A stretch of 64,000 nt of DNA, taken from the IMG/VR virus record IMGVR_UViG_3300045012_000181, positions 61,607-125,606 of that record; one strand, given 5' to 3'. A program made the translations under genes and the position numbers. The notes under the pieces were generated by a model. It searched no databases. It was given only the letters and a program-made list of their open reading frames with translations, and was not told the origin of the DNA. This stretch comes from a virus. Shown here piece after piece: positions 42,901-62,683 of the stretch; the stretch's first letter is position 1, and each line of letters begins with the position of its first letter.

Positions 42901-45900
42901 AAGGAATTGGAGCGTGAGGCCCAGAAGTCCCGGGAAATCATGGGCGCTCTTAAGGGCGAGGAGCCCGCTGAGAAGGCCGAGCCCACAAAGACGCCGCTTT
43001 ATCCTAGCGTGGAGAAGGCCCCAGCACCCGAAGAGAAGTCCGAGGAGAGCGGTGGGGACTTCCTCATGCGCTTCTTTGAGAGCGAGGACCCCCGAATTAA
43101 GGAACTACTGCCCAAGGAAGCCGTGGAGGCCCTTAGCCGGTTGCATGACAAGATTGGTGAAACGCCCGAGCGCGAACAAGCGGCCAAAGAGGTTCTGGAG
43201 AGTATTGCCAAGAACAAAGGCAAAGACGCCATCGTAGATGCGGCCAAGAAGTACGGCAAGGCCTTACAGGGCTTGGTCCGTGAGGGCCTGTCTGAGCCCA
43301 AGGCCGAGCGACAGTTGCCAGCGCCCAAGGCCGAAGAGCCAACAGAGACCAAGGGCGGTTTTACCAACAAAACCCGAGAACTTTCCGAAAAGAATGCAGC
43401 CCAAGGTCGCGCGGACCGTCAAGACGGCCCATTGGATGTAGCACGTTTTAAAGGCCCAGCGCCCAAACAGCCGGCCGAGCCCGCCAAGACGCTCAGCGAC
43501 GAGGATGTCATGCACGACATCCAGAACATGCCCCACGTCAAGGAGGTCTACGATAAGCTCTCGGCCCAACAAAAACTGGAATTCATCGACCGCTACAAAG
43601 ACCCCAATCAGCATCCGGATGTGGACATTTTGGCGCCGCCTGAGCTGCGAGAACGTACAAAAGCCCCCAAGCCAGCCGAAAAAGAGCCCAGTGCCTTAGA
43701 AAAGGCCGAGGAGCTCTTTGAGCGCGCCAAGGCTTCGGGCGATTCCGAGGTGATCCAGCGGGCCAAGGACCTCCGAGACAGCCTACTAGAAACCAAGGCC
43801 AGCCCCGCTACACCGACAAAATCCGAAACCTCGTCTCCCGACACTCTTAGGCGAGCTGCAGCACGGGCTCCCCGTGAGGCCTCGCCTGAGGCTCTCAAGA
43901 AGCACGCCGAAAAGACCTCTAAAATTGAAGGCGAATACGCCCAAGATCGGGCCAAACATGCCGAGCGCCTGAATGAAGTACAGGCCCTAAGGGCCGTTGA
44001 CCCCAAGGACTACACGCCGGCCTTTGTGGACCGCTTGGAGAGATACGGCAAGGGCCTGCTGGATGCCGAGGGCCAACACGATTTTCTGGCCAAGGTCTTT
44101 GAGGCCCGCCAGAGATTCCGCGCGGGTGATGACAAAGCCGGACATGCCGCCGTAACTAGTGCCTTGGCCATGGCGGACCAACGCCTTTTTGTGCCCAAAG
44201 AGCCTGTCCTGCCAGTCAGGCCCTCAGTGCCAGCCGAGGAGGCACAACGGGGGCAGAGCAAAGCCGATTCGATTCGGGAGCAACTAGGCCGGATTGCCCA
44301 GCACGTCCAAGGTGTGCCTGTTGGCGAAGACCGCACCAACTTGGAACAACGCCTGCAGACCATCAGTTCCAAACTCGAAGAGACTGCCGCCAAGATGAAA
44401 TTGGCCATGCGCAATATTCGAGCCATGGAAGAGCGGGGCGAATTCGAGCGCACCTACAAAGACAAAGACGGCAAACCCGTCACAGAAACCCTCGATCAAA
44501 TCAAGGCCCGGGTGCGTAATTTGGGCTTGGAGCGTAGCCGATACGTTGAGGAACACCTGCCCGCTCTGGAGGTGGCTGCAAAGGCCTTAAGCCATTCGAC
44601 GGGCGAGAAACCCATTGACTATAAGCAGCCCAAGCCCGGGAAAACGGTGGCAGATGTTACGCGTTATGAGCCCGATCCCCGGACGGGCAAGCCCATACCT
44701 GTGCGGACGCAGCCCGAGGTCGTGGAGGCTCCGCAGGCCGGAACCCGAACCAAGGCCGAGCTCATAGATGATCTTAAGCAGGCCCAAGAACACCTCAAGA
44801 ACCTGATTAATAAATCCGTTGAGACGGAGTTTGATAAAACGGGCAAGGGCTCCAAGAAGTTCGGCTCCAGCGCGGAACAAAAGGGCGCTTCGGATCTGCG
44901 CAAGCTCATCACGGACTTGCAGCGCCAAATCGGGCCCAACGCGCCCGGTGCGGCCGAGGGCACCAAGGAAACCATCGAGGGCCAGGGCCTCCTTAAGGCC
45001 TCGGGTGCATTCCAGAAGCCCGCTGGCGAACGCATGACCGCGGGCGAGCCCACAGGACCCGCTCCAGAGGACCCCGTTGCGGACCTGCATGCCTACTTGA
45101 ATGAGTTCGCTGAAGCTCGCGATAAGGAAACCGGCGCTTTAAAGTGGGGCATTGACCCGACTGCGATGGAGTATATCAACAAGGCCCTTCCGAGTGGAAG
45201 TGCTGCCAAGACCTTCGGGCCCGCAGCCGAACACCTGGCTCGTCCGATTTTTGAGGCCATGCAAAGGGGCTCTATCATGCCCGATGTTGCGGCCAAGCGC
45301 CTTGAGCGCTCACTGCGAGCGCTGGCCAAGGGCCTTGCGGATGCCAAGAAGGCCCCGGCCGAACAACAGATTGACATCAGGAAAGCAGCCGTCTCGGAGG
45401 CAAAAAAAATCGCCCGCGGCGAAGGGCCAACGGGCGAGAAGGGTTCCTTTGATATCGGTAAGGAGCGGGGCCGTGGTCTAGAGGCCGCGAAGCGCATCCG
45501 CGAGGAGCGCGAACGCGAAGAGAAGGGCCCCTTCTACAGCATGTCCGAGAGGGTCGTACGGGAGAATTGGCCCGGCGGACCGGATGCCAAGGCCTCGCCT
45601 AAGGACATCGGTGGGATGCTCGCGAATGCAGGTGTGTCTAAGAACGAACTCAAGTGGTCCGATGTGGACAGCTACTTGCTGAAGGCCCAGAAAGAGGGCC
45701 GGCAGGTCACAAGGAAGGAAGTGCTGGATTATCTGAAGGAGAAGAATCCCCGGGTTGAGGTGACTGAAAAGAAGTTCGATAAGGCCGCAGCCACAGCGCA
45801 CCAAGAAAAACTTCGTGAATATTCCAACAAACTTGCGCAGGGCTTTGAGGAAACCAAGAACGCTCTAAAAGATGCCTTGGGCATTTCGGACAACAACGCT

Positions 45901-48900
45901 GCTGCACTGATACACAGGCATTCCGAGCTACCAGAGGACCGCGGTGGATCGGCCTACGCTAGGGAACAAGAGCTAAAGCAGCTCCGAAACGACGTGGAGG
46001 ATATTGCCCTGACTAAGGGCAAACACATCTCCATTGCCGAGTTGGACAAGCTCTTTGAAAAAATGGACCAGCACAACATACAGGCCTACAATTTTGAGAC
46101 CTTCCGGGATAGTCCGGAAATGCAAGGGGGTGCTAATGGCCCGCGCTACGAAAGCTATAGCATGCCCGGCGGCGACAACTACCGGGAGGTGCTGCTTAGA
46201 ATCCCCTCTGAAGGTATGAAGGGCGAGAAGATCGGAGAGGGTGCCGAGGCCAAGGACGTTTACCATGGTCCGCACTTCGACGAGCCCAACGTCGTGGCGC
46301 ACCTGCGCCTCAAGGACCGCGTGGATGCCTCTGGCAAGAAGACGCTCTTCATAGAAGAGGTTCAGAGCGATTGGGCTCGTGAGCTCCGAGAACAGCAGAA
46401 AAAAGGCGGTGAGGCGGCCTGGTTCGGTAACCCCCGCGGAGCCGGGATCGGTGCTCCGGATATGCCGTTCACCGAGGGCCACTGGCTCGAACTGGCCATG
46501 AAGCACGTGCTCAAGGAGGCCGCAAACAAGGGCTATGACAAGGTCGCATGGACCACGGGCGAGCAACAGGCCGCCCGATACAGTCTCCGAAAGCGTTTCG
46601 ACCGCATTGGTCTAGAGGAAGACCGAGACGGCCACGTGCACTTGGTCGGCCGTACACCGGGGAATGCCGAGGCCTACAATCCCTACAACACTCTAGAACG
46701 AAACATAGACCTTTCCAAATTGCACGAGTACGTAGGCCGGGAAAACGCCCAGAAACTACTGGAGGCCTACAGGGGCGCCGACCAACAGAAGCCCTCTAGA
46801 GCTTATATTGAAGCCAAGGATTTTGCCAAAGGCGGCGAACACCACCTCCAACTCTACGACAAGATGATTCCGCAATTTATGGAACGGTATGGCAAGAAGT
46901 GGGGCGCCAAGGTCGGGCAGAGCACTCTGGACACCACGGACATGGTTAAGGCACATGTGTCGCCTGGCGGAGCTGAAGCAACGTCCGCCACCGTACACAG
47001 CATGGACATCCCCTCGGCCATGCGCGATGTCCTCAAGCAACCCCTCCGGCAGATTGGCGGAAGTCAGGCCGGATTTGTGCGGCCCTTTGGCAAGAAGGCC
47101 ACCGAAGCGGCGGAGCGCAAGACCGCCAGGGAGAAGCAGGCCCAAGAACTCCGGGACGCCGTGGAGCAAAACAAGCCCCATCAAATCGCCCAGAAACTGG
47201 AGGGCTTCGTCCGAAGTCTGCCCAAGGGCACCGTGGACGAGCGCCTGAAGATGGCCAACGAGGCCATCAAAGCGCAGCCCTCAACAGGTCCGGGCCGTGT
47301 AAAGCAGGCCCTCCTGAACGCCCGAGTGAATCTGAAGACCATGGCCAGCTGGTACTGGAATGGCGAAAAATCCGGTATCAAACTCCGGGACGCCATGAAA
47401 GGCAACACCGATCCCAATGTGGGCTTCAAGAAGGCCCTAGGCCATTACAACGAGGCCTATCAGACCGCAGCGGCTGACGCCCACGCCGTCGTCGTGAACA
47501 TGCGCAAGGCCCATCCCCAGCACGTATTGGATGCCCTACATCTGGCCATGGACACCAACTTCGACAAGGACCTGCTGGCCAAGGCAGCCTCTAACGAGAA
47601 GTTGGACGCCCGCTTGCGCAAGGCCGCGCATGTGGCCCAGAATCTCACGCCTGAGGAGCTGGGCGCCGCGAAGGCATACTCGCAATTTTTCGAGGAACAG
47701 GGCCAGATGCTCAGCCGCATAGGCGCTCTGAGGCACATGCTCGAAAACTACGTCCCGCATATCGTCGACCCCGAAAGCGTACCGGGGCAGAAGTTCATGA
47801 GCGAATTGCGTGCGGGCGTCTTTGACACCAACTTCAAGTACGCCAAACAGCGCATCCACGAAACCATGCTCGATGGTGCCCAGAAGGGCATCAAATACCA
47901 GCTGGGCATCGACCGCGCCTTCTGGGATTATCACCGCCGGAGCACGCAGAGCATCGCCAGCCGGGCCTTCATCAAGGAACTCAATGGCGTTTCGCAAGAA
48001 GACAACAGGCCCGCACTGGTCCCGGGCTACAACACCATCCAGCCCATTTTGCCGGCCGAGTACAGCAAATACCCACAAATCAAAGAGATGCTCGATGCCA
48101 AACCCGAACTCAAAAAAGGCCTTGCGGACTCCTACATGTTCCGAGATAATCGGGGCCCTTCAGGTCCAATAGCCGACGTAAGCACATTAGAGGCCCTGGG
48201 CATCAAGTACAACGAAAAGACCCTAACGGAAAACGATAAGGCCCGGCTGGACGTGAGCGACTACAAGCACGTCGACCACCCAGATTTTAAACAGACGGTT
48301 TACGTTGGTAAGGGCCCGGACGGCAAGCCGGTCTTCTACAAGGCCGACCTCTATGCGCATCCGGCCATCTACGACCACCTCAAGAACATCTACGAGGCCT
48401 CACAGTTCAGAACAAACAAGGTCACGCAAACTGCGCTGGCCGTTACGGCAGCTTCCAAGCGCCTGCTTCTAAAGGTTCTGCCCAGCGGTTTCCACTACAG
48501 CCAAGAGGGCCTGCACAGCATCGGGCATGGCATAAACCCCTTCAAGAAGGACATCTGGAACGGTCAAACGGCCCGGGCCTCTCTAAACGACCCCGTTGTA
48601 AAGCGCGGTCTGCGAAGCGGCCTGCAATTGTTCGACTACGATAACGCCGACGCCATGGAAGGCATCAAGGGCGTCAAGGGCTTCGAGAAGGATTTCGAAA
48701 ATCACCTGTTTGGCAAATTCATCCCCGGCCTCAAAATCGAGACCTTCAAAAAGCAGGTGCACGAGAATCTGGAAATCTACGGCAAAAAGGGCTACTCCGA
48801 GGACCGCATCTATGAGATGACGGCTCAGCAAATCAACAACGCCTACGGAATGCAGAACCGACTGTTCACCGGTCGGACAAAGTTTATGCAGGATTTGTTC

Positions 48901-49509
48901 CGCTTGACGGCCCTAGCTCCGGACTTTCTAGAGAGTCGGGCAAGATTCGTGGGGAGTGCCTTTAGGCCAGGTGGCCGTCAACAGGCCATGGCCCTCATGC
49001 GCCTTGGATTGTACATGTACGGCACGGCCCGAGTTCTGAACGCCATCAGCAACGATGGCGACGCCAAATGGCACCCCAAGGACTTCTTCACATGGCACGT
49101 CCGCGGGCATGAATTCAGCATGCGCTCCGTGCTGACGGATGCCATCTTCGCCGCCACGGACCCCAGCGCCTTCCTGGCCTCTCGTGGAGCCCTGTTGCCC
49201 AGGGCCGTGTTTGCCGAAGGCCAGAAGGCCGGCACGCCCAAGTTTCTCAAGGACAAACAGCCCTCTGGAGTCATGCAGGGTCTCGTTCGGAGTCTGTCGC
49301 CCATCGTGGCCCAGAGGCCCATCATGGCGCTCATGCGCAAGGCCTATGAGCAAAAAAACGGCCCCAGTATTGCCTGGGAAACTTTCGCAGGCATACTTGA
49401 GGCCGTGGCAGGTGTTAAGGAAAAAGAGGAAACTTCCGACGGATCAACGCGGAGGTCGGGGCCTTCTGGGCCGCACCTGCCCCGAATGCCGAGGCTTTCC
49501 AGTCGGTGA
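39940..49509 (+). CDS. Giant polyvalent / ejected virion protein (3189 aa)
   Basis: One uninterrupted frame of 9,570 bases. Residues 1-700 are Pro/Gln-rich and mostly disordered. Residues 700-1900 are long charged helices with repeated K-E/A-P-E linkers. Residues about 2050-2380 match the large polyvalent protein domain found in many phage and mobile-element giants: L-F-I-E-E-V-Q-S-D-W-A-R, P-F-T-E-G-H-W-L-E-L-A-M-K, V-A-W-T-T-G-E-Q-Q and L-Y-D-K-M-I-P-Q-F with K-K-W-G-A-K-V-G. The final 700 residues are helical, ending in an apolar section. It likely enters the host with DNA. A virion RNA polymerase was considered and not supported. Confidence 0.75.
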   Translation: MPPLPQQPDQQQIPPLPSTDPFEQSYQKHKAEIETPQAPPKAPVSQGADPRVSADPLRGILDPVQVDNGIKRQAWDAYHGAKTPEEFRKFFDNAQLPQETKRALWNLKFQAPIETVQGAQQAIQQAAPQETYQQFVAKNYPAWSQAQARPDEPSVPIPSMFGTLNVPTWHQLQKSLAQAPPSEQEWQAQNQLWNNPQQAFQQMVGQMAAHPTQTALGMVGTASGAPEQGALPSKPTVDVQSLLQPKGKFGQGAAQGLSELTSPQNIGMLLTIPAERLIGLYYKGQMSLDTLQLVNQARAKYMAGDNAGAQELLGQAAVTGGMVAGMEASERTGRTASQTTPQGPARVSDMGRGEGQQMAGPGVPGQPTPVQIGPTQTANVGVEGGPRPSMQSGLTAAQEVTGRSTGAGLRAPTSAPIERGGTTAGGTVGTVTPKPSTLPLHVPEQRTAELDRRQTLDLPPAEGDRRLQDRRNINDVAREQMTQGLQGQPTPGQQLEQTMRQGLPKPGIDEAQVWQYITQKGINNPTWYAEWKRQFEAAAVKNPRNGPGEMLKAVQAEMEASKQPQIQAQPVATPQPSALDKVRQIQGAPTDAQRPSGLPQAPSNAPAEPTGPGQQPVRAAQAPAGPAGEPLPGTKEPVRLAAATPREQQTKPQPKPYVPLPPGERPRMVVGPKEPVGGSKEAPPPGATAPSAPVEIPKATPRPAGAMKPELESWKETRRTEAQQRNEILKQNAQGREPKADNRGELHKVVDRYLKSPGDSARRGFELDQAVEAIRKQGPEAIEREHAELSQKATRAEKMADWGHKALDKGVEAWDLEMRDKAHAVKFPAYEEGGATYFTGKTTDEGKPEAHLKPSRELPADEAEAIARLRGNTLKEVGTPRDVPEEEKAQLKTWEENRDRLVEEIRKRGGKVTEQAYKQLQTYITGIQSIKGTRFIVAGGPELTKGPEGALERTGTRTTQQMWNTFLGHPEGAHFARPSRERVETRVKELEREAQKSREIMGALKGEEPAEKAEPTKTPLYPSVEKAPAPEEKSEESGGDFLMRFFESEDPRIKELLPKEAVEALSRLHDKIGETPEREQAAKEVLESIAKNKGKDAIVDAAKKYGKALQGLVREGLSEPKAERQLPAPKAEEPTETKGGFTNKTRELSEKNAAQGRADRQDGPLDVARFKGPAPKQPAEPAKTLSDEDVMHDIQNMPHVKEVYDKLSAQQKLEFIDRYKDPNQHPDVDILAPPELRERTKAPKPAEKEPSALEKAEELFERAKASGDSEVIQRAKDLRDSLLETKASPATPTKSETSSPDTLRRAAARAPREASPEALKKHAEKTSKIEGEYAQDRAKHAERLNEVQALRAVDPKDYTPAFVDRLERYGKGLLDAEGQHDFLAKVFEARQRFRAGDDKAGHAAVTSALAMADQRLFVPKEPVLPVRPSVPAEEAQRGQSKADSIREQLGRIAQHVQGVPVGEDRTNLEQRLQTISSKLEETAAKMKLAMRNIRAMEERGEFERTYKDKDGKPVTETLDQIKARVRNLGLERSRYVEEHLPALEVAAKALSHSTGEKPIDYKQPKPGKTVADVTRYEPDPRTGKPIPVRTQPEVVEAPQAGTRTKAELIDDLKQAQEHLKNLINKSVETEFDKTGKGSKKFGSSAEQKGASDLRKLITDLQRQIGPNAPGAAEGTKETIEGQGLLKASGAFQKPAGERMTAGEPTGPAPEDPVADLHAYLNEFAEARDKETGALKWGIDPTAMEYINKALPSGSAAKTFGPAAEHLARPIFEAMQRGSIMPDVAAKRLERSLRALAKGLADAKKAPAEQQIDIRKAAVSEAKKIARGEGPTGEKGSFDIGKERGRGLEAAKRIREEREREEKGPFYSMSERVVRENWPGGPDAKASPKDIGGMLANAGVSKNELKWSDVDSYLLKAQKEGRQVTRKEVLDYLKEKNPRVEVTEKKFDKAAATAHQEKLREYSNKLAQGFEETKNALKDALGISDNNAAALIHRHSELPEDRGGSAYAREQELKQLRNDVEDIALTKGKHISIAELDKLFEKMDQHNIQAYNFETFRDSPEMQGGANGPRYESYSMPGGDNYREVLLRIPSEGMKGEKIGEGAEAKDVYHGPHFDEPNVVAHLRLKDRVDASGKKTLFIEEVQSDWARELREQQKKGGEAAWFGNPRGAGIGAPDMPFTEGHWLELAMKHVLKEAANKGYDKVAWTTGEQQAARYSLRKRFDRIGLEEDRDGHVHLVGRTPGNAEAYNPYNTLERNIDLSKLHEYVGRENAQKLLEAYRGADQQKPSRAYIEAKDFAKGGEHHLQLYDKMIPQFMERYGKKWGAKVGQSTLDTTDMVKAHVSPGGAEATSATVHSMDIPSAMRDVLKQPLRQIGGSQAGFVRPFGKKATEAAERKTAREKQAQELRDAVEQNKPHQIAQKLEGFVRSLPKGTVDERLKMANEAIKAQPSTGPGRVKQALLNARVNLKTMASWYWNGEKSGIKLRDAMKGNTDPNVGFKKALGHYNEAYQTAAADAHAVVVNMRKAHPQHVLDALHLAMDTNFDKDLLAKAASNEKLDARLRKAAHVAQNLTPEELGAAKAYSQFFEEQGQMLSRIGALRHMLENYVPHIVDPESVPGQKFMSELRAGVFDTNFKYAKQRIHETMLDGAQKGIKYQLGIDRAFWDYHRRSTQSIASRAFIKELNGVSQEDNRPALVPGYNTIQPILPAEYSKYPQIKEMLDAKPELKKGLADSYMFRDNRGPSGPIADVSTLEALGIKYNEKTLTENDKARLDVSDYKHVDHPDFKQTVYVGKGPDGKPVFYKADLYAHPAIYDHLKNIYEASQFRTNKVTQTALAVTAASKRLLLKVLPSGFHYSQEGLHSIGHGINPFKKDIWNGQTARASLNDPVVKRGLRSGLQLFDYDNADAMEGIKGVKGFEKDFENHLFGKFIPGLKIETFKKQVHENLEIYGKKGYSEDRIYEMTAQQINNAYGMQNRLFTGRTKFMQDLFRLTALAPDFLESRARFVGSAFRPGGRQQAMALMRLGLYMYGTARVLNAISNDGDAKWHPKDFFTWHVRGHEFSMRSVLTDAIFAATDPSAFLASRGALLPRAVFAEGQKAGTPKFLKDKQPSGVMQGLVRSLSPIVAQRPIMALMRKAYEQKNGPSIAWETFAGILEAVAGVKEKEETSDGSTRRSGPSGPHLPRMPRLSSR

Positions 49510-52227: not shown

Positions 52228-52893
52228 CTAGGGCTTGGAATCGTCCGGCGTGGTGTTGAGGGCGCTTGTGGAGCTCGTGATGAAATTGCAGCTGGCCAAG
52301 GCCTGACCAGAGGCATAACTATTGGTTGCGTTATATAGGCTCTTGTAGATGTTAGGAATGTTGAAGGGGTTGTTGTAATCGGTTGCCACAGAGAAGTTGA
52401 AGCCAAGGTTTTGTCCAACGCTCCAGCTATCAGGCCCGGAACCCAAGAAAACAAACTGAAAGTTCTCCGAACGCCTCTCGTCGATAAGACGGCGGACCTG
52501 TTGCAGGGAGTAGTCCCGACTGCGGTTCTCTTGGCCATCTGTAATTACGACTACTAAATTCCTATAATGGCTATCAGAATATCGAAAGGATTCCAGCAAC
52601 AGACCCACAGAGTCCAATAACCTCGTCCAACCCTCCGGACGATACTCTGAGTGTTCCAATTGACCAACATCCCGGATGTCCTTTCGGGATATTAGAAAGT
52701 CCGTCCGTTCATTGAAGACCGCCACGGTAATTTTATACCGCTGTCCGTCTTCTCGGAGCCTGTCCAGATAGTTGTTAACCTCTCGGATGGTCTCATCCCG
52801 GCGCACATCCATGCTACCACTGGCATCCAGCAGCAACGTGACGTTCGTCAAACCCCCAATGGGGTATTGCCTACGACGTTTGTTACTAAGCAT
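52228..52893 (-). CDS. von Willebrand factor A domain protein (221 aa)
   Basis: The MIDAS metal site is complete: D-A-S-G-S at residues 23-27, a Thr in E-G-W-T-R, and the Asp of V-I-T-D-G. The domain runs from about 15 to 190. ATG 52893 follows AAGGAGAAGGAATAAA; the longer frame upstream overlaps the endonuclease. vWA proteins usually bind partners through a bound Mg. With no MoxR ATPase beside it, its partner is unknown. A vWA gene in an early operon is uncommon. Confidence 0.85.
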   Translation of the reverse strand: MLSNKRRRQYPIGGLTNVTLLLDASGSMDVRRDETIREVNNYLDRLREDGQRYKITVAVFNERTDFLISRKDIRDVGQLEHSEYRPEGWTRLLDSVGLLLESFRYSDSHYRNLVVVITDGQENRSRDYSLQQVRRLIDERRSENFQFVFLGSGPDSWSVGQNLGFNFSVATDYNNPFNIPNIYKSLYNATNSYASGQALASCNFITSSTSALNTTPDDSKP

Positions 52894-52894
52894 T

Positions 52895-53347
52895 TTATTC
52901 CTTCTCCTTGTAAACCTTGGTCTCGCGACCCCATCTATCAAGATATTCTAAGATAACGGTACGATTCTTTTCAAACCAACCCAAAGCCGGATTGCAGCGA
53001 GTGCACAACAGTTCCCGCACCTGTCCGGTATCGTGGTTGTGATCGACGGCCAACCGGGTTTTTATGTTGGTACGCTTACAAATGGCGCAAACTCCGGCTT
53101 GTGCAATCAACATCTTGTCGTAGTCTTCAACGGTTATGGCGTATTTGCGCTTGTAAAGCAGTGCCCGGTTTTGCGCACACCGTGCTTCACTGTATTTCTT
53201 GTTGTAGGCTTTGTGGTAGGCGTTGTGCTTCTCGCGCACCCCGGGAGCCTCCCAATGCCGCCATACTTGGTAGCAGTTTTTGCAACGGCCTCTGCAATAG
53301 TAAGGACGGTCTGTATACGGACAATCAGTTATCTGTTTTCTCTGCAC
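52895..53347 (-). CDS. Endonuclease VII-like nuclease 1 (150 aa)
   Basis: Relative of T4 recombination endonuclease VII, which resolves branched DNA. After a Cys-rich, basic N-terminal half (C-P-Y ... C-R-G-R-C-K-N-C), the core shows Y-D-K-M-L-I-A-Q-A-G-V-C-A-I-C, then V-D-H-N-H-D-T-G with the catalytic Asp/His and R-E-L-L-C-T-R-C-N with N-P-A-L-G. The chosen GTG at 53347 overlaps the exonuclease stop by 23 bases; other starts are possible. Free-standing copies often act like homing nucleases. Confidence 0.8.
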   Translation of the reverse strand: MQRKQITDCPYTDRPYYCRGRCKNCYQVWRHWEAPGVREKHNAYHKAYNKKYSEARCAQNRALLYKRKYAITVEDYDKMLIAQAGVCAICKRTNIKTRLAVDHNHDTGQVRELLCTRCNPALGWFEKNRTVILEYLDRWGRETKVYKEKE

Positions 53348-54041
53348 GCGTAGCCCGACCCCATCTCCTGCAGCTTTTGCAAACAAAACGCCGGTACTGC
53401 TTATTGTTGACGTAGGCAAAGCCCCGATATTCCACAGCTCCACCGCACACACCGCATTTCGAACGGTCCATCACCAAACGGGTGTGCGCGTTGTCGAAAG
53501 GCCGGAGTCTAAAGTAAAGTTCCTCGGTGGTTCGAACATCCTGACGGCAATAGTCGACCATTCGGTCCAAAACGCTCAAATCTCCGCGCAACAAGTCCAT
53601 CCAGGATTCCGGAAACCGCAGGCCCTTGTTGCTCTTTTTGTTCTTTAGCTTGAGCACTCGGCCCAAGTTGTCCAGACTATTGGACTTGTACTTGGCCACA
53701 CTGCGTGCAATCAAGCAGGTATCGCGGATTTTAGAATTGGGCAGCGGGGGTAAGTCATGAAAAAGCAAGCGCCCGTTTATAAAACGGCGATCGAAAACCG
53801 CGGCAAAGTGCCCCACCAATATGTCGGCCTTCTCGAACACAGCGGCGGCGCGTTCCAGCACGCTCCGGTCGTCTAGGGCCAACAGTTCCTTTTCTGAAAC
53901 CGTGATGTCATAAACTTTGGGATCGTCAGCCCATTTATAGCACAAGGTGACAATCATGCCCTGATCGGCGTGCAGGGCGCCTACCCCGAGCGTTTCTATA
54001 TCGAACGTGAGCACTCGAACTTCGTTACTTTTGTTTGCCAT
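53325..54041 (-). CDS. DnaQ-like 3'-5' exonuclease with zinc-ribbon tail (238 aa)
   Basis: DEDD-type exonuclease: D14-I-E16 (Exo I), G-H-F ... F-D84 (Exo II, with His in place of the usual Asn) and Y164-C-R-Q-D168 (Exo III). A C-terminal zinc ribbon uses C196xxC199 and C221xxC224. Close in plan to the YprB/RNase H-like exonucleases. AAGGAAATAG precedes the ATG. It may degrade host DNA or help replication proofreading; the polymerase has its own exonuclease domain. Confidence 0.85.
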   Translation of the reverse strand: MANKSNEVRVLTFDIETLGVGALHADQGMIVTLCYKWADDPKVYDITVSEKELLALDDRSVLERAAAVFEKADILVGHFAAVFDRRFINGRLLFHDLPPLPNSKIRDTCLIARSVAKYKSNSLDNLGRVLKLKNKKSNKGLRFPESWMDLLRGDLSVLDRMVDYCRQDVRTTEELYFRLRPFDNAHTRLVMDRSKCGVCGGAVEYRGFAYVNNKQYRRFVCKSCRRWGRATRAEKTDN

Positions 54042-54354
54042 CTATTTCCTTTAGGACCTGCTGCGCAGGGGGATTTTTTAGATACTCAACCATATTCTGA
54101 AGCCAAGAAATGTTGTCCACACGACCCAGTCGGCGGTTACAGCCATAGTGCCGGCCGCCACAGAGCAGGCCCCGTACTGAGCGCCTTTTGTCTTTTATCC
54201 TGTGGTCGTGGTCGGTTTCCACGCGGAGGCCCTGTTTTGAGCCGCGGCGAAGGGGCCGCTTACAAGCCGCACACAACCAGTTCTGAAAGTCGCCGATGGC
54301 CGTCCACTCCTCCAGTGTTATGCCGTAAGTTCGCTTAAGATAGGCGTTGTTCAA
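54025..54354 (-). CDS. Endonuclease VII-like nuclease 2 (109 aa), TTG start
   Basis: Core motifs: Y-G-I-T-L-E-E-W near 10-17, W-L-C-A-A-C, V-E-T-D-H-D-H near 45-51 and V-R-G-L-L-C-G ... Y-G-C-N-R-R-L-G near 61-76. TTG overlaps the upstream TGA (TTGA). It lacks the N-terminal Cys-rich half of the other copy. Probable role: resolution of recombination intermediates before packaging. Confidence 0.82.
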   Translation of the reverse strand: MNNAYLKRTYGITLEEWTAIGDFQNWLCAACKRPLRRGSKQGLRVETDHDHRIKDKRRSVRGLLCGGRHYGCNRRLGRVDNISWLQNMVEYLKNPPAQQVLKEIDGKQK

Positions 54355-54811: not shown

Positions 54812-55671
54812 AGGTCTTTGTACTTTCCTTTCGGCCATCCAGTGGCTTTTTCGGTAGGCCCTCCAAACGTAAAGGACTCTCCCAACCACTGTATCGTTCC
54901 GTTACGCAAGCGGCGTACGAACAAATCCTCAATAGGCTCCCCCCGCCGCAGTTCAAAGGATAGTTTCAGAACGGGTTCGGGTGTGTGTTCGCTACTAAGC
55001 CTAGTAACCTCCAGGAGCGTGTCCAAATCTCCATAAAGCGCACTGCTACCGCGCATGCGGTCACCACCACGCTTCTGCTTGGCCGGATCAGGGTCTTGTT
55101 TACCAATGTGGTGAATGAACATCACGGCGGTTTTGTGGTCCTCGATTATATGATCCGCTACTCGCATGAGTGCGCCCATTTCCTGGCTATCATTTTCATT
55201 GCTTAGGTTGAACTTAGCAAAGGGATCGAACACGATCACCTCGGGTTTGATATCCTTAATCAAGCAGTTTATGTAATCTCGTCCTTCTGCTGTATCCAGA
55301 CGCATGGCCGTATCTCTGGATTGAATAAAGAACGGGAGTCCTTCGGGTTCCACACCTGCCGTCAGCCCCGGCAAGCCTTCTTTGCCTCTTAGTCGCTCCA
55401 ATAGACCCTGTTCGCCCATCTCCATTTCCAGATACAAAACCCTTCTAGGTTGCGGAACGGGCAGTACAGGTACGCCGGAAGCATAGGAGGCGTCGAACAA
55501 TCGTCTGCCGCGGGCGATGTCAAGCATTATATTCAACATAATAAAGGACTTGTTGGTTTTTGGACTCCCGGCCATAAAAAGTTTCCCGCCGCAGGGGAGT
55601 ACCCCTCTGCCTATCACGTGCGCCCCGGGTTTATACTCCAGTTTCAAGAAGTCCGCCAGAGACAGGGCCAC
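54808..55671 (-). CDS. RepA-like hexameric helicase-type ATPase (AAA_25 group, 287 aa)
   Basis: RecA-fold ATPase of the plasmid RepA/AAA_25 type. The Walker A loop reads G-S-P-K-T-N-K-S at 35-42, with Asn in place of the usual Gly before Lys-Ser. Walker B is V-I-V-F-D-P near 150-155, and F-I-H-H-I-G-K near 175 is the conserved sensor segment. GTG 55671 follows GGAGGTCTTGA. This is the best candidate for the replicative helicase, with no separate primase seen in the window. Confidence 0.8.
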   Translation of the reverse strand: MALSLADFLKLEYKPGAHVIGRGVLPCGGKLFMAGSPKTNKSFIMLNIMLDIARGRRLFDASYASGVPVLPVPQPRRVLYLEMEMGEQGLLERLRGKEGLPGLTAGVEPEGLPFFIQSRDTAMRLDTAEGRDYINCLIKDIKPEVIVFDPFAKFNLSNENDSQEMGALMRVADHIIEDHKTAVMFIHHIGKQDPDPAKQKRGGDRMRGSSALYGDLDTLLEVTRLSSEHTPEPVLKLSFELRRGEPIEDLFVRRLRNGTIQWLGESFTFGGPTEKATGWPKGKYKDL

Positions 55672-56170
55672 TCAAGACCTCCATGCCCAAGTTAGAGGGT
55701 TTCTGTAAATTACGCGGTTGCTCATCTTTTGTTTTGCGTTTCTTCCAATTACAGTTTGCGCACAGCAGCTGGTATTTTCCGGTTGTGTCGGCAATAACTT
55801 TCTTATGGAAACGAGAATGGTTATACTTTAGAGCTTTATGTTCTTGTACACCTCCGCCGTCGACATGATCGATTTGCAGCATGTCCTTATCAGTGCATCC
55901 AAATGTACCATCCTCGTTTAGCCATCTACAGTTGGGATTCGCGCACCTATTTCCTAGCTTATCAAAAGCAGCATCTCGAAGTTTGTTGTAGTATTTCTTA
56001 TCGGCCACTCTGTGCCTTCCGAAGAACCTCTGTTTATGTTTTTTATTTTTCTCTTCACAATCTTTACATGTCACCCTACCCGCAGGAACCTTATTTCTTA
56101 TACAGGTCGGGCATATTCCAGCGGCTTTGTTTCGCTTGTAACGTTCTCGTAACCAAGCCGCAGTTGGCAC
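55631..56170 (-). CDS. HNH homing endonuclease (179 aa), GTG start
   Basis: GTG 56170 overlaps the upstream TAG (TAGTG) and is preceded by AGAGAGG. N-terminal Cys4 unit (C-P-T-C and C-K-D-C), basic linker, then the HNH core with M-L-Q-I-D-H-V-D-G-G-G and L-L-C-A-N-C-N-W. Its 3' end overlaps the ATPase start by 41 bases, so it is wedged between two replication genes. Lower GC content marks it as an insertion. Confidence 0.9.
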   Translation of the reverse strand: MPTAAWLRERYKRNKAAGICPTCIRNKVPAGRVTCKDCEEKNKKHKQRFFGRHRVADKKYYNKLRDAAFDKLGNRCANPNCRWLNEDGTFGCTDKDMLQIDHVDGGGVQEHKALKYNHSRFHKKVIADTTGKYQLLCANCNWKKRKTKDEQPRNLQKPSNLGMEVLSGPVSGGLLETGV

Positions 56171-56574
56171 TAAGCCTCTCTTTTGGGATAAATGATTGCT
56201 ACAAGCGTTCCGTCTGTGGGATTGGCACTCAGGCCCTCTCGAATAAAGTGCACACGCTTTCTGAATAGGCGCAACTCCGCACCATGTTGCTTTAGCACGT
56301 GGAACCATTCCGTGTCCGTGCGGGCCGGAACCACGTAGACCACCACGCGAGCCCCGCTTGATAGGCCTTTTAGGACCCAAGGCCCAATATCGGACCAAGG
56401 CGGATTTACAAAGACTCTTTTGTCGGTCCAATCCAACTTCAGACCATCCGAGTCCTTCTCGGGATCGAATTGGGAGTTCAGGGGACAGGGGTCCAAGTCG
56501 AAATCGAACTCCGTGTTGAGGGCTTGGAACAGGTAATCCGGGGTGGCGTAGTTGTTATTGCCCGACCATTTCAC
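56170..56574 (-). CDS. Phage N-6-adenine DNA methyltransferase, Dam-like (134 aa)
   Basis: Short phage Dam family: N-N-N-Y-A-T-P-D at 6-13, L-D-P-C at 27-30 and the catalytic N-P-P-W at 57-60, followed by W-V-L-K. The family methylates adenine, often protecting phage DNA from host restriction. At 134 residues it is at the short end of the family; the C-terminal strand I-I-Y-P-K-R is present. The start overlaps the SerRS-arm gene by 20 bases. Confidence 0.85.
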   Translation of the reverse strand: MKWSGNNNYATPDYLFQALNTEFDFDLDPCPLNSQFDPEKDSDGLKLDWTDKRVFVNPPWSDIGPWVLKGLSSGARVVVYVVPARTDTEWFHVLKQHGAELRLFRKRVHFIREGLSANPTDGTLVAIIYPKREA

Positions 56575-56812
56575 AGAGCTGTTCCTCCAGTTGGGCTATC
56601 CGTAACGTATTGGACCGTATCTGGGCGTCCAAGTAGTAAATCTCGGATTCCAGTTTTTTAATGGCCCGGAGATTTTGTACTTCGGTTTCGGCTTCCCGGC
56701 GCTGAATATCAACGTCCAGGATTTGAGTAACAATGTCCGAATTCAGACCCCGTGCCAGTTGGTTCTCGCGATAGCGCTCGGGCCTTAACCGCATGTCCTT
56801 GATGTCGTGCAT
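56555..56812 (-). CDS. Stand-alone SerRS N-terminal arm homologue (85 aa)
   Basis: The opening MHDIKDMRLRPERYR and R-G-L near 21-23, then I-L-D-V-D-I-Q-R-R-E near 31-40 and E-V-Q-N-L-R-A-I-K-K near 44-53, follow the start of bacterial seryl-tRNA synthetase, whose first ~100 residues form a two-helix coiled coil that grips the long variable arm of tRNA-Ser. The rest (LDAQIRSNTLRIAQLEEQL) supplies the second helix. No catalytic domain follows. ATG overlaps nothing but adjoins the upstream TAG (TAGATG), with AAGAAGATGA before it. It may bind tRNA-Ser or mimic SerRS. Confidence 0.72.
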   Translation of the reverse strand: MHDIKDMRLRPERYRENQLARGLNSDIVTQILDVDIQRREAETEVQNLRAIKKLESEIYYLDAQIRSNTLRIAQLEEQLCEMVGQ

Positions 56813-57100
56813 CTAGTTCATCTTCTTGAAACTCAGGCCCGCCGGCATGGCCAGAGGCCCATCGGCCACGTCCATCTCCTCTGCAGCGATGGCGTTCCGG
56901 GCCTTTATTGTTGCGAGAGTGCGCTGAGTTTGTTCTTGGAGAGTTTCAAGCTCACAACTTGGAAAGATACCCAACCTATAGCGAATTCCATCCTGGCCCA
57001 TTATGGGCCTGTGCACCAAGGTTAGGTACCTGAATTCCCGCAGCACTATGCAGGGTTCATCAGTGAGCACGTTATACAAGACTTCACCGTATTTATTCAA
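56813..57100 (-). CDS. Hypothetical protein (95 aa), TTG start
   Basis: TTG 57100 follows AAGGAAAACAA, overlapping the upstream gene by eight bases. Residues 1-50 are beta-like (MNKYGEVLYNVLTDEPCIV), then a helix (TLQEQTQRTLATIKARNAI). No family recognised. Confidence 0.55.
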   Translation of the reverse strand: MNKYGEVLYNVLTDEPCIVLREFRYLTLVHRPIMGQDGIRYRLGIFPSCELETLQEQTQRTLATIKARNAIAAEEMDVADGPLAMPAGLSFKKMN

Positions 57101-57257
57101 TTGTTTTCCTTAAAAACCTTAGAAGAGCCTTGGAACAGTCTTGACACAGCTCTTTGTCCACATCAAGAGACAGTCCCTCCAGACTTAAACGACATTGTTC
57201 ACAAAACTCAGGTATGTCTTTAGCACATCTATCACATCTGACTACGGTTTTTCTCAT
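57093..57257 (-). CDS. Small zinc-ribbon protein (54 aa)
   Basis: ATG overlaps the polymerase stop (ATGA). C8-D-R-C11, C19-E-Q-C22 and C38-Q-D-C41 give six Cys in CxxC pairs within 54 residues. Lys/Arg-rich at both ends. Probably a nucleic-acid-binding accessory; not otherwise recognised. Confidence 0.65.
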   Translation of the reverse strand: MRKTVVRCDRCAKDIPEFCEQCRLSLEGLSLDVDKELCQDCSKALLRFLRKTIE

Positions 57258-59752
57258 TTCGCCTCGCCCCAACTTCCCCCCACACCTGTTTCAACAGGAA
57301 AACTGTAGCCTCCAAACTCTTTCCAAGGCTGCGTAAGAACCTTCTCTAAAACGGTCTTTACCTCATCCACCATATTCAGGGGGGTCTCCAAAACAAAACT
57401 ATCGTGCACAGTTACCAACAGACGAGCCGGATGCGGTAGAGGATGATAAACCTGAACCACCTTTTGAACCTCAGATTCAGGCCAACCGATTCTGTCGTAC
57501 ATCAGGGCAATCATGCAACGGATAAGAATCTCGGCGCCGCAACTTTGAGGGAGGAAAGAAATCGACTCAGTATGGGCGCTGGAAGTGTAGAAAAAACGCT
57601 TGCGCCCGAAGGGATTTGTTAGATAGCCGTCGGCTTTGGCTCGGGCTGCGGTTTCGTTCTGCCAAGCGATGGTTTTGGGATTGGCAGCCTTCCATTTGTC
57701 CACCAGAACTTTTACCTCGGCGTAGGGCAAGTCGTTAATCTTGGCTATCTTCATAGCCCCCTCAGCGTAGTTCAAGCCGTGGGTGACCTTCTTGGCCTTT
57801 GTGTATGGACTGTCTCCTGCGGAATCTTTTACGACTTCATCGTAGGGAATATCAAATAGGGTGCTGGCATTGTATTTATGCTCGGAATAACCAGGTTGTG
57901 CCAACCTATCTAGGCGTTCGTAGTCATTAGACAACAACGCCGTTAGGCGGTTCTCCAGGGAAGCAAAGTCCGAACTTACGATAACCCAATCGTTGTGACT
58001 GGGAACGTAAATATAGCGAGCACTTGCAGGAAGATTTTGAAGATTGGGTCCGCTACTCGATAGTCGCCCCGAGGCAGTTCCATGAACATTAAATGAGGCA
58101 TGAATGCGCTCGACACCGCTGTCCTCCCAGCTCTCCTTCACGAAAGTGCTTAGCAAGCTGGCAATCTGTCTTAGCTGTTGCAGGACTCGCAGGGCCTTGA
58201 GGACTTCGAGGGCTTTGTCGAGTCCGACTTCCTGTTCGTAGGCTTTTCGGGAAGCCGCCCGGATGAGCTTGGGAAGGGCGACCTTGTCAACAGTCGGTTC
58301 ATTCGTCTTCGCATGCGTTTGTACTGGGAGCTTCGCTTTCGCATATAAGTAATCCTTCAGAACCTCAGAGCTCTTCCAAGGCGTAACACTCTCGGTGGAG
58401 TCCGTCATCACATATTTGAGGGGCTTTTTTGTGCGCTCGGACAGAGTTCCAGGAGGCGCCAAAACGCGTTTGCGTATCGGGACCTCCTGGGTCTGTAATT
58501 CCGCTGGAAGTTCGTTCTCCAGCTCTTTTGACTTGTGCTCCAAGTCTGCCCGAACAGTTTTGAGACGGGCGGGATCGATTCGGAATCCGGTTTCGTGCAG
58601 CAGATGGCAGATACGGGCCAAGGGCACTTGGACATTCTGGTACAAATCCAAGAGTCCCTCATTCCGGAGCATTGGCCGCAGTTGCTGGTAAATTTGAAAG
58701 GTCGCGTCACAGTCCCTTATGTTGTAGAGGGTTTCATCGTCGCCGGATAGATGCTTCCAAGCGGTCTTATTAAGCAGGAAGCTTCCAACGAAGCCCAAGC
58801 CATGAGGCATATCAGGGAAGCACAAATGTTCCATAAGCATGCCATCCCACGAATGGAAGTCCTTGGGAGGCTCTATGCCGATGGCCTTGAGACGGGGCAA
58901 ATCGAACTGCTCACCATTCCAAGTTACAATGTCCGTGGCGTTGGCAAAAATACGCTTGAGCTCAGTTAGATAGACGCCCTTTGGGGGCACACTTAATCCG
59001 GTGTACTTTTGGCCGCACAGACCCACCATGGTAATTTCGCCGGTGGTACGGACCGTTTCTATGTCCGTCGCGAATTCCCTGAACTGAAAGGCCCTCACGT
59101 CCTCCAAAGTTGGAGTGGTGTTGTAGTGTTCCGGAGCGAGGTCTAGCGTTTTCGAGAGGTCTTTGACAACCGCTGGGATGTAGCTTTGGTCGCGGGCGAT
59201 ATAGGCCGGGTGCAACGTCGGGACTGTAAGGGGCTCCGGACCGCACGCGGGAACTGCGAGGGGAGAACCGCGCCATCGCATGATTCCAGTTTTTCCGGTG
59301 AGCGCAATAAGGCTCTTATCGCCAAAGCAATCAATCCGAGTCCAATTACGACCAGTGAGAACGGGCTTAACATGGTTGTTCCAGCATTGTTTTAGTGCGG
59401 CTTCCGCCTCTTCCTTCGATATGTAATCTCGTGCATCAGGATCAGTAGGAAAAATATTACCAGGGGGCCTACAACCCAATACGTTGCACTTCGAAACGGT
59501 TGCGCCTTCGACTCCAGCAGCGCGGTATAAACCTCCTGAACGCTTGCCATTTTCACCCTCTTTTCCGAACAGCCAGCCACCGCTCGTGCCCACGAAGGGC
59601 TCGGAGCGCTCGGCCTCAAGTTCACCGGGCGCCTCGCCCACACACAGGCGGCTACCAGCAACCAAATGGGCCGGAACAAAGTTGGAATTCGGGAAGAGCC
59701 GCGCCATGGGACATCCGGCACAGCCTGGAGTTTCACTAACGGTCTTAGGCAA
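57254..59752 (-). CDS. Uracil-DNA glycosylase / family A DNA polymerase fusion (832 aa)
   Basis: TTG 59752 follows AGGAGTTTGA. Residues 1-205 are a UDG family 4/5-like domain: V-G-E-A-P-G-E at 38-44 (active-site loop), the four iron-sulphur-type cysteines C11, C14, C94 and C123, and L-H-P-A at 180-183. Residues 220-360 form the 3'-5' exonuclease (D230-I-E232; N279..F-D284; Y343..D347). The polymerase part has T-A-S-G-R-L-S-S-S-G-P-N-L-Q-N-L-P at 559-575, motif A D595 with E600, motif B K-K-V-T-H-G-L-N-Y, and motif C H783-D784-S785, with Ser replacing the usual Glu. It should replicate the phage genome while handling uracil in DNA. Confidence 0.9.
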   Translation of the reverse strand: MPKTVSETPGCAGCPMARLFPNSNFVPAHLVAGSRLCVGEAPGELEAERSEPFVGTSGGWLFGKEGENGKRSGGLYRAAGVEGATVSKCNVLGCRPPGNIFPTDPDARDYISKEEAEAALKQCWNNHVKPVLTGRNWTRIDCFGDKSLIALTGKTGIMRWRGSPLAVPACGPEPLTVPTLHPAYIARDQSYIPAVVKDLSKTLDLAPEHYNTTPTLEDVRAFQFREFATDIETVRTTGEITMVGLCGQKYTGLSVPPKGVYLTELKRIFANATDIVTWNGEQFDLPRLKAIGIEPPKDFHSWDGMLMEHLCFPDMPHGLGFVGSFLLNKTAWKHLSGDDETLYNIRDCDATFQIYQQLRPMLRNEGLLDLYQNVQVPLARICHLLHETGFRIDPARLKTVRADLEHKSKELENELPAELQTQEVPIRKRVLAPPGTLSERTKKPLKYVMTDSTESVTPWKSSEVLKDYLYAKAKLPVQTHAKTNEPTVDKVALPKLIRAASRKAYEQEVGLDKALEVLKALRVLQQLRQIASLLSTFVKESWEDSGVERIHASFNVHGTASGRLSSSGPNLQNLPASARYIYVPSHNDWVIVSSDFASLENRLTALLSNDYERLDRLAQPGYSEHKYNASTLFDIPYDEVVKDSAGDSPYTKAKKVTHGLNYAEGAMKIAKINDLPYAEVKVLVDKWKAANPKTIAWQNETAARAKADGYLTNPFGRKRFFYTSSAHTESISFLPQSCGAEILIRCMIALMYDRIGWPESEVQKVVQVYHPLPHPARLLVTVHDSFVLETPLNMVDEVKTVLEKVLTQPWKEFGGYSFPVETGVGGSWGEAK

Positions 59753-61482: not shown

Positions 61483-62325
61483 TTAGATTGAGATTGAAGT
61501 ACTTGAAGTGGCCGCTGTGGGAACTGCACTCGCAGACGCGGCTTGATGACCTGCGAGAATCTTGTTTAGAAGGTCTGGAAAGGAGCCCTGGCCGGTTTCC
61601 TTGTCGAAAATTTCTTCCTGACTCAAGAAAGGCTTTCCACTGTTATTTCTGTCTTTGGCTAAATGGACGGAGTCGGCTTGCGTTATCAAGTACCGTTGCA
61701 TGTACGCACTCTTAGGGTCGCGAGGGTCTTTTAGAAGCTTGCGTACTTTTAGATACATACAACTGTCGAACATGGCTGCTGCGGCGTCTCCTAGAGCCCC
61801 TGGCAAATCTGGTTTTATACGCGTGATAACACCATTGTCATCTTTCTCGTACTTGGCCAATGCTGTTACAACTATATGCTTCTTTTGCCCAAGCAGCGCA
61901 TTAAGAAGATTTCTGGTAACCTCGCTTATTTCTCCAAAATCAAAACCGCTAGGGATTCCGGCTTGGCGTCGCATCGCCTCACGTGGATTCTTCGCAGGAA
62001 AAGATGTAAGCACGTGCTCTTTGATAAAAGATTTTACCATGTACGACAAACTATCCAAAGCGATTGTACGCTTTTTTTGAAAGGGCGCGAAGGTGTCGTA
62101 ACAAATACTCCGGAAGTCAGCAAAGCTCTTGGGTTCCACAAAGTCCACTCCGGCTTTAACAATACTCAACGTGCCCGAACCCTCTCCGGGTTCACAAGCT
62201 GCTATCCCAACGTCCGGCGCGGTGGCAGCCCAAGTGGATTTCCCAATTCCGGGATCAGCCACCAAAAGCACCTTCCAATTGTAACTCTCGGGCTTGATTA
62301 AGTCTTTCGTGTTCCTTAGCTCCAT
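61483..62325 (-). CDS. AAA_24 / Sak4-like recombination ATPase (280 aa)
   Basis: ATG 62325 follows AAAGGAGAACA, removing 14 residues that the longest frame would add inside the HNH gene. Walker A is D-P-G-I-G-K-S-T at 24-31, and T-I-A-L-D-S-L-S near 85-92 is Walker B. K-K-H-I-V-V-T-A-L-A is the sensor strand. RecA-core ATPases of this kind support single-strand annealing or strand exchange in phages. It pairs with the SSB-like gene 16 bases downstream. Confidence 0.8.
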   Translation of the reverse strand: MELRNTKDLIKPESYNWKVLLVADPGIGKSTWAATAPDVGIAACEPGEGSGTLSIVKAGVDFVEPKSFADFRSICYDTFAPFQKKRTIALDSLSYMVKSFIKEHVLTSFPAKNPREAMRRQAGIPSGFDFGEISEVTRNLLNALLGQKKHIVVTALAKYEKDDNGVITRIKPDLPGALGDAAAAMFDSCMYLKVRKLLKDPRDPKSAYMQRYLITQADSVHLAKDRNNSGKPFLSQEEIFDKETGQGSFPDLLNKILAGHQAASASAVPTAATSSTSISI

Positions 62326-62683
62326 TGTTCTCCTTTGGGTTGTGCGGGCAATAGCCAAAATGTCCAAGGGAGTGGTTACAATTCATACATAAAACCCTGA
62401 AGCCCTCGGGAAAGTTGTGATTTTTGAGCCAACGATAGATTTTTACTGCGCTTGGGTCTTCCTTACGGTGCTTGTTGCCGTTTCCGGCTATGTGGTCAAT
62501 AGAAAGAAACTCTTCGTGAGTCTCTTTGCAGCAGGCGCACACAGGAAACGACCCACTGCTGTAGTGCAACAAGACTTCGTGCTTTTGCTCACGGTCTTTT
62601 TGGCGCGTGTAGGCATTGTGATAGGCCTTGTTTTCCCAGTAACGCTTTGAGGTACGTTTATTGCACTCCGCCTTGTTAGCCAC
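62255..62683 (-). CDS. HNH homing endonuclease (142 aa), GTG start
   Basis: Basic, Tyr/Asn-rich N-terminus (NKRTSKRYWENKAYHNAY), then C-A-C-C, F-L-S-I-D-H-I-A-G-N-G-N-K-H with the catalytic His, and V-L-C-M-N-C-N-H-S-L-G. The last 71 bases overlap the ATPase gene. Fourth HNH gene in the window, again touching a replication gene without breaking it. Confidence 0.9.
   Translation of the reverse strand: MANKAECNKRTSKRYWENKAYHNAYTRQKDREQKHEVLLHYSSGSFPVCACCKETHEEFLSIDHIAGNGNKHRKEDPSAVKIYRWLKNHNFPEGFRVLCMNCNHSLGHFGYCPHNPKENNGAKEHERLNQARELQLEGAFGG

What the first reader, a model, noticed from the sequence alone, without database searches (positions are those of the whole stretch)
56555..56812. Free-standing homologue of the seryl-tRNA synthetase tRNA-binding arm
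The 85-residue protein starts like SerRS (M-H-D-I-K ... R-G-L ... L-D-x-D-x-x-R-R) and is predicted to be a two-helix coiled coil, but has no catalytic domain. I know of no described phage protein of this type. It could sequester tRNA-Ser, compete with host SerRS, or act as an anti-defence tRNA-binding protein. The operon also holds a Dam methylase and a UDG-polymerase.
Basis: partly seen in the sequence, partly recalled or inferred. Interest (0 to 1): 0.8.

Follow-up and report, generated by a model that had tools for sequence, protein, structure and literature searches.

The report
Stand-alone SerRS arm-base protein in phage
A metagenomic phage carries a small gene whose first two-thirds descend from the tRNA-gripping arm of seryl-tRNA synthetase, but the part that would fold back to complete the arm is replaced by a long helix that probably pairs with a second copy; this reuse of a synthetase fragment has not been described as far as I could find, and its function is untested.

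Summary
The 85-aa ORF is real, and its similarity to the seryl-tRNA synthetase (SerRS) N-terminal domain is more than chance. Pfam PF02403 scores 31.4 bits (cut-off 28.2), from residue 1 of the protein to position 1 of the profile. Profile-profile comparison gives E 6.5e-8, shuffled copies give nothing, and an unbiased tblastn of plasmids returns only SerRS-like N-termini. Only residues 1-57 are SerRS-like. AlphaFold predicts the two small N-terminal helices and the start of the arm helix, then one unbroken helix to residue 84, alone or with 38 SerRS sequences in the alignment. The arm tip, return helix, linker and catalytic domain are missing. Residues 51-82 form Ile(a)/Leu(d) heptads typical of a parallel dimer. 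No free-standing relative was found in phage records, IMG/VR (within pattern limits), 50 viruses sharing its polymerase type, or 98 bacterial genomes. The same 125.6-kb phage encodes RtcB, a T4-like RNA ligase, a TROVE/Ro60 protein and a truncated HisRS core, but no detected tRNA genes. Most likely it is a SerRS-derived, dimerising protein that binds tRNA-Ser or SerRS. The homology is well supported; the function is inferred.

The parts
56555..56812 (-). 85-aa ORF; stand-alone relative of the SerRS N-terminal tRNA-binding domain
   Evidence: PF02403 31.4 bits; hhalign 94.6% / 6.5e-8; intact ORF with codon usage like its neighbours
56642..56812 (-). SerRS-like part, residues 1-57: two small helices plus the proximal arm helix
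   Evidence: Profile and BLAST matches mostly end at residues 50-61; keeps M1, D3, R8, R21, D35, R38, R39, S56 of the conserved SerRS columns
56567..56662 (-). Residues 51-82: zipper-like heptads (a = I,I,I,I,L; d = L,L,N,L,M) in place of the SerRS arm tip and return helix
   Evidence: Heptad read-out; continuous helix in both models
56813..57100 (-). Upstream 95-aa ORF of unknown family; its stop codon directly precedes the ATG of the 85-aa gene
   Evidence: No Pfam match; no phage match; junction read
56170..56574 (-). Downstream Dam (N6-adenine methyltransferase) gene, overlapping the 85-aa ORF by 20 nt
   Evidence: PF05869 E 8e-17; phrog_111 E 1e-27
57254..59752 (-). Family A DNA polymerase with an N-terminal UDG-like region
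   Evidence: PF00476 E 8.8e-39; UDG 22.5 bits, below cut-off

Best explanation
[quoted passage not shown] It keeps the base of that domain: two short helices and the first half of the arm helix (shown by sequence profiles). The arm tip, return helix and catalytic domain are gone (shown). In their place the arm helix continues as a zipper-like helix (predicted), which probably makes the protein a parallel homodimer with two SerRS-arm bases at one end (inferred). The most likely activity is binding host tRNA-Ser, or the tRNA-Ser/SerRS complex, during infection, either shielding or withdrawing tRNA-Ser or altering how host SerRS handles it (inferred from ancestry). A phage with RtcB, an RNA ligase and a TROVE protein, and so probably fighting tRNA-cleaving defences, is a plausible setting (inferred).
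For: PF02403 above its gathering score with end-to-end N-terminal register; both halves contribute and shuffles fail; hhalign 94.6%, E 6.5e-8 over residues 1-61 against 8 SerRS N-domains; best of 11,727 ORFs by 9 bits. Unbiased tblastn of 7.3 Gb of plasmids: 11 records, the ten listed all aligning within residues 1-57; two of them are annotated serS and two unannotated ones read here are full-length SerRS, best E 3e-3; a 53-residue ungapped match to the Nonomuraea SerRS. Conserved SerRS residues retained. Fold search of the second model: top four hits are SerRS, e.g. 6x94 over 54 columns at 0.9 A, none significant. RNA-repair genes elsewhere in the phage: RtcB 216.7 bits, RNA ligase 49.6 bits, TROVE 68.1 bits.
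Against: No homologue was found, so conservation cannot show that the protein is functional. The distal arm and return helix that complete the tRNA-binding coiled coil are missing. Net charge is -3, which does not favour RNA binding. No tRNA genes were detected in the record, and the neighbours are DNA-replication genes, not RNA genes. Dimerisation rests only on heptad reading.
Confidence: 0.38

Rival explanations
1. Structural reuse without tRNA function: the SerRS-derived piece now serves only as a dimerising helical adaptor in the DNA-replication/methylation gene cluster (for example for the neighbouring 95-aa protein, Dam or the polymerase).
For: Arm tip and return helix lost; regular Ile/Leu heptads over residues 51-82; gene tightly packed between the polymerase, the 95-aa ORF and Dam; net charge -3.
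Against: The SerRS-specific residues of the base (D3, R8, R21, R38, R39, S56) are kept, which a pure spacer would not need.
Confidence: 0.33
2. Host-SerRS modulator: the protein docks on the SerRS catalytic domain in place of the native arm base and retunes or blocks charging of tRNA-Ser, in the manner recalled for the T4 vs peptide acting on host ValRS (from memory; not found in the papers searched).
For: What is retained is the arm base, the part next to the catalytic body; SLIMP/SerRS2 in flies shows the SerRS arm and catalytic site can be split between two subunits (PMC10817482).
Against: The linker into the catalytic domain is missing; no complex prediction could be run.
Confidence: 0.2
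3. Decaying remnant of a once complete phage SerRS gene.
For: Full-length SerRS genes occur in some phage records, including Brevundimonas phages.
Against: The ORF is intact, codon usage matches its neighbours, the C-terminus is an orderly zipper rather than a decayed arm, and the stop is followed by an intact Dam gene. PF00587 finds no SerRS catalytic domain in the record, only the separate HisRS-like protein.
Confidence: 0.05
4. Not homologous: a generic coiled coil that happens to resemble SerRS_N.
For: Coiled coils do give weak PF02403 matches (12-18 bits, 25 bits in one case).
Against: Those background matches mostly fall mid-profile; this one starts at position 1, scores above cut-off, has signal in the first 35 residues, and an unbiased search returns SerRS itself.
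Confidence: 0.04

Closest known systems
SerRS N-terminal tRNA-binding domain (Pfam PF02403)
   Same: Start-to-start alignment over residues 1-57; helix pattern h1, h2, long arm helix; D3, R8, R21, R38, R39, S56 kept
   Different: Arm tip and return helix absent, replaced by a continuous zipper-like helix; no catalytic domain; 85 aa instead of about 420-430
Stand-alone LysRS KTSC RNA-binding domain protein of jumbo phages (PMC7824862)
   Same: Phage-encoded, free-standing RNA-binding piece of an aminoacyl-tRNA synthetase; suggested there to aid ribosome rescue or phage translation
   Different: Unrelated domain from another synthetase; no zipper helix described in the passage read
SLIMP, SerRS paralogue of insect mitochondria (PMC10817482)
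   Same: SerRS-derived protein that keeps the tRNA-binding coiled coil while catalysis lies in another subunit
   Different: Full-length paralogue with a dead active site; eukaryotic; keeps the complete arm
Full-length phage SerRS (Brevundimonas phages and others; phrog_16140, 426 positions and unnamed, aligns only at E 0.011)
   Same: Phage record carries a SerRS N-domain
   Different: Complete enzyme; not close in sequence

Membership tests
Pfam PF02403 Seryl_tRNA_N | Score above the curated gathering threshold | tested here: met
   31.4 bits against 28.2
Pfam PF02403 Seryl_tRNA_N | Match over the whole domain (108 positions) | tested here: not met
   Only positions 1-56 align with Pfam; a SerRS profile that included this sequence aligned 1-96, which is circular
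SerRS tRNA-binding arm | Two long antiparallel helices forming a hairpin | tested here: not met
   AlphaFold2: one helix 25/26-84, pLDDT 88.7 and 89.6, without and with SerRS sequences; prediction only
SerRS tRNA-binding arm | N-terminal helices h1 (about 4-8) and h2 (about 11-20) before the arm helix | tested here: met
   Same elements in both models; SerRS entries are the top four fold matches of the second model, E 2-5, so not significant
[quoted passage not shown]
   Needs a binding assay
Seryl-tRNA synthetase (enzyme) | Class II catalytic domain on the same protein | tested here: not met
   ORF ends at residue 85; the only PF00587 match in the record is a separate HisRS-like ORF
Free-standing aaRS-derived RNA-binding proteins | aaRS appended domain encoded as a separate intact gene | tested here: met
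   Intact ORF, no catalytic domain
Free-standing aaRS-derived RNA-binding proteins | RNA binding | not testable with these tools
   Needs a binding assay

The most novel reading that the evidence does not exclude
A new kind of phage counter-defence or translation-control factor: a dimeric decoy made from half of the SerRS arm that takes hold of tRNA-Ser (or of host SerRS) and works alongside the phage's RtcB, RNA ligase, TROVE and HisRS-like proteins to keep the tRNA pool usable during infection.
Probability: 0.15. Interest if true: 0.8.

Novelty: new variant of a known kind. Interest (0 to 1): 0.45.

Why it matters
Stand-alone synthetase appendices in phages are rarely described, and I found no report of one from SerRS. 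If it binds tRNA-Ser or SerRS, it would show that a phage can target one tRNA family, recognised by its long variable arm, with an 85-residue protein, and it would give a small reagent for perturbing serine charging. If it does not bind tRNA, it is a clean example of a tRNA-binding arm turned into a dimerisation helix.

Tried and rejected
Searches for homologues: tblastn of phage records (none); the search for related loci in IMG/VR with the protein and three alignments (none confirmed); genome contigs (none); neighbours used as bait for near relatives of this locus (polymerase, AAA_25, none); a 299-genome draw from the phylum of a Marinomonas strain with the single sequence (empty and uninformative, since the fast first look also missed the real SerRS genes); 50 polymerase-related viruses with PF02403 (only 12-15-bit matches). 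An alignment of nine diverse SerRS was too divergent to give search patterns. PDB phmmer with the single sequence: none. Foldseek with the single-sequence model: not significant, SerRS 6gir at rank 3, E 6.8; nothing useful among viral structures. In 98 genomes of one bacterial phylum all PF02403 matches above cut-off look like ordinary SerRS (frames of about 420 aa or more; two shorter frames of 166 and 245 aa match the full 107-108 positions at over 100 bits, one of them near a contig start, and were not followed up). A NCBIfam 'SidA' hit at 13.4 bits (cut-off 60) is coiled-coil noise. A frameshift fusion to Dam was considered and set aside because the Dam ORF has its own start and typical N-terminus. 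Donor lineage is unresolved: actinobacterial SerRS gives the best E-value; a ruminant-gut MAG SerRS (L143) scores about as well.

Full report
What is there. The minus-strand ORF at 56555-56812 encodes 85 residues and begins with an ATG that follows directly on the stop codon of a 95-aa ORF of unknown family; its end overlaps the start of a Dam methylase by 20 nt. Upstream lies a family A DNA polymerase with a weak N-terminal uracil-DNA-glycosylase match. The window is part of a 125,606-base virus record. Its terminase is remotely like those of phiEco32 and other podoviruses at 23-25% identity, and COOH-NH2 ligases of the phiEco32 type are present. One IMG/VR fragment has an 81% identical terminase, but it is 9 kb long and was not shown to cover this locus.

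Is the SerRS likeness real? Yes. PF02403 matches above its gathering score, residue 1 to profile position 1. The first 35 residues and the remaining residues each give signal in register, while shuffled and reversed copies give none. A profile of 79 SerRS N-domains ranks it first among 11,727 six-frame ORFs of this and related viruses, 9 bits ahead of the next. hhalign against eight SerRS N-domains gives 94.6% and E 6.5e-8 over residues 1-61. Searching 7.3 Gb of plasmid sequence with no prior assumption returned 11 records; the ten listed all align within residues 1-57. Two of those are annotated serS, and two unannotated ones that I read are complete SerRS genes of about 420 residues. The best, from Nonomuraea, aligns over 53 residues without a gap.

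What is missing. [quoted passage not shown] Here the similarity stops at about residue 57: the conserved positions of the arm tip and the IPN linker have no counterpart, and there is no Gly or Pro between residues 23 and 83 to make a turn (sequence). AlphaFold2 from the single sequence gives helices 4-8, 11-20 and 25-84 at mean pLDDT 88.7. Adding 38 SerRS N-domains, which should favour a hairpin, still gives 26-84 as one helix at 89.6. The fold search with the second model puts SerRS entries in the top four places (6x94: 54 columns, 0.9 A), with E-values of 2-5, so it is supportive only and not independent of the alignment.

What replaces it. Residues 51-82 carry heptads with a = I,I,I,I,L and d = L,L,N,L,M. 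From general knowledge of coiled coils, Ile at a and Leu at d favours a parallel dimer. I infer a homodimer with two SerRS arm bases at one end. This was not tested; no multimer prediction was available.

How rare is it? No free-standing relative was found in annotated phages, IMG/VR within the limits of pattern searches, 50 viruses with related polymerases, or 98 bacterial genomes. These searches are weak for a fast-evolving 85-residue protein, so absence is not proven. Full-length SerRS genes do occur in phage records, though some of those records are unverified assemblies.

What it may do. The rest of the phage offers a setting: RtcB and a T4-type RNA ligase, a TROVE/Ro60 protein, a NAMPT-like enzyme and a 212-aa HisRS core-like protein whose best phage relative lies close to a tRNA-His gene in a Sinorhizobium jumbo phage. 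RNA-repair sets of this kind, and stand-alone LysRS KTSC domains, are described in jumbo phages (PMC7824862). No tRNA genes were detected in the record. I take tRNA-Ser or SerRS-complex binding as the most likely activity (0.38), structural reuse as nearly as likely (0.33), and a SerRS modulator as third (0.2). The loss of the tip, the net charge of -3 and the DNA-replication neighbourhood keep the tRNA reading well below certainty.

Verdict. I rate it a new variant of a known kind (free-standing synthetase-derived domain), interest 0.45.

Noticed in passing
L005:3013-3651 (-) (record G000:C1:21013-21651); also L003:1378-2016 (-): 212-aa protein matching the HisRS catalytic core (PF13393 35.5 bits, PF00587 31.2 bits), far shorter than HisRS; 38% identical to a 196-aa protein annotated histidyl-tRNA synthetase, one gene away from tRNA-His, in Sinorhizobium phage Phosso. 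A second synthetase fragment in the same phage.
   Followed up: partly
L005:14033-15205 (-), L004:10134-11090 (-), L006:1687-3081 (-): RNA-repair set: RtcB, T4-type RNA ligase and a TROVE/Ro60 protein with a vWA domain; the TROVE protein is 45-49% identical to those of Xanthomonas, Caulobacter, Brevundimonas and Microcystis phages.
   Followed up: partly
L005:18003-19451 (-): Nicotinamide/nicotinate phosphoribosyltransferase-like gene, suggesting NAD salvage by the phage.
   Followed up: no
L004:15913-17451, L004:8805-9809, L005:7597-8781 (all -): Three proteins of the phiEco32-type COOH-NH2 ligase family (PF14395), with a glutamine amidotransferase at L004:14073-15167.
   Followed up: no
window 39940-49509 (+): 3189-aa ORF, the largest in the window; part of it gives a weak PF02403 match (13.7 bits), a useful noise level for coiled coils.
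   Followed up: no
window 52895-53452 and 54025-54354 (-): Two genes matching recombination endonuclease VII (PF02945), with further HNH-like ORFs at 55631-56431 and 62255-62683 judged by eye, so the replication region is dense in small nucleases.
   Followed up: partly
window 52228-52941 (-): Stand-alone vWA-domain protein (PF00092 35.3 bits), in addition to the vWA of the TROVE protein.
   Followed up: no
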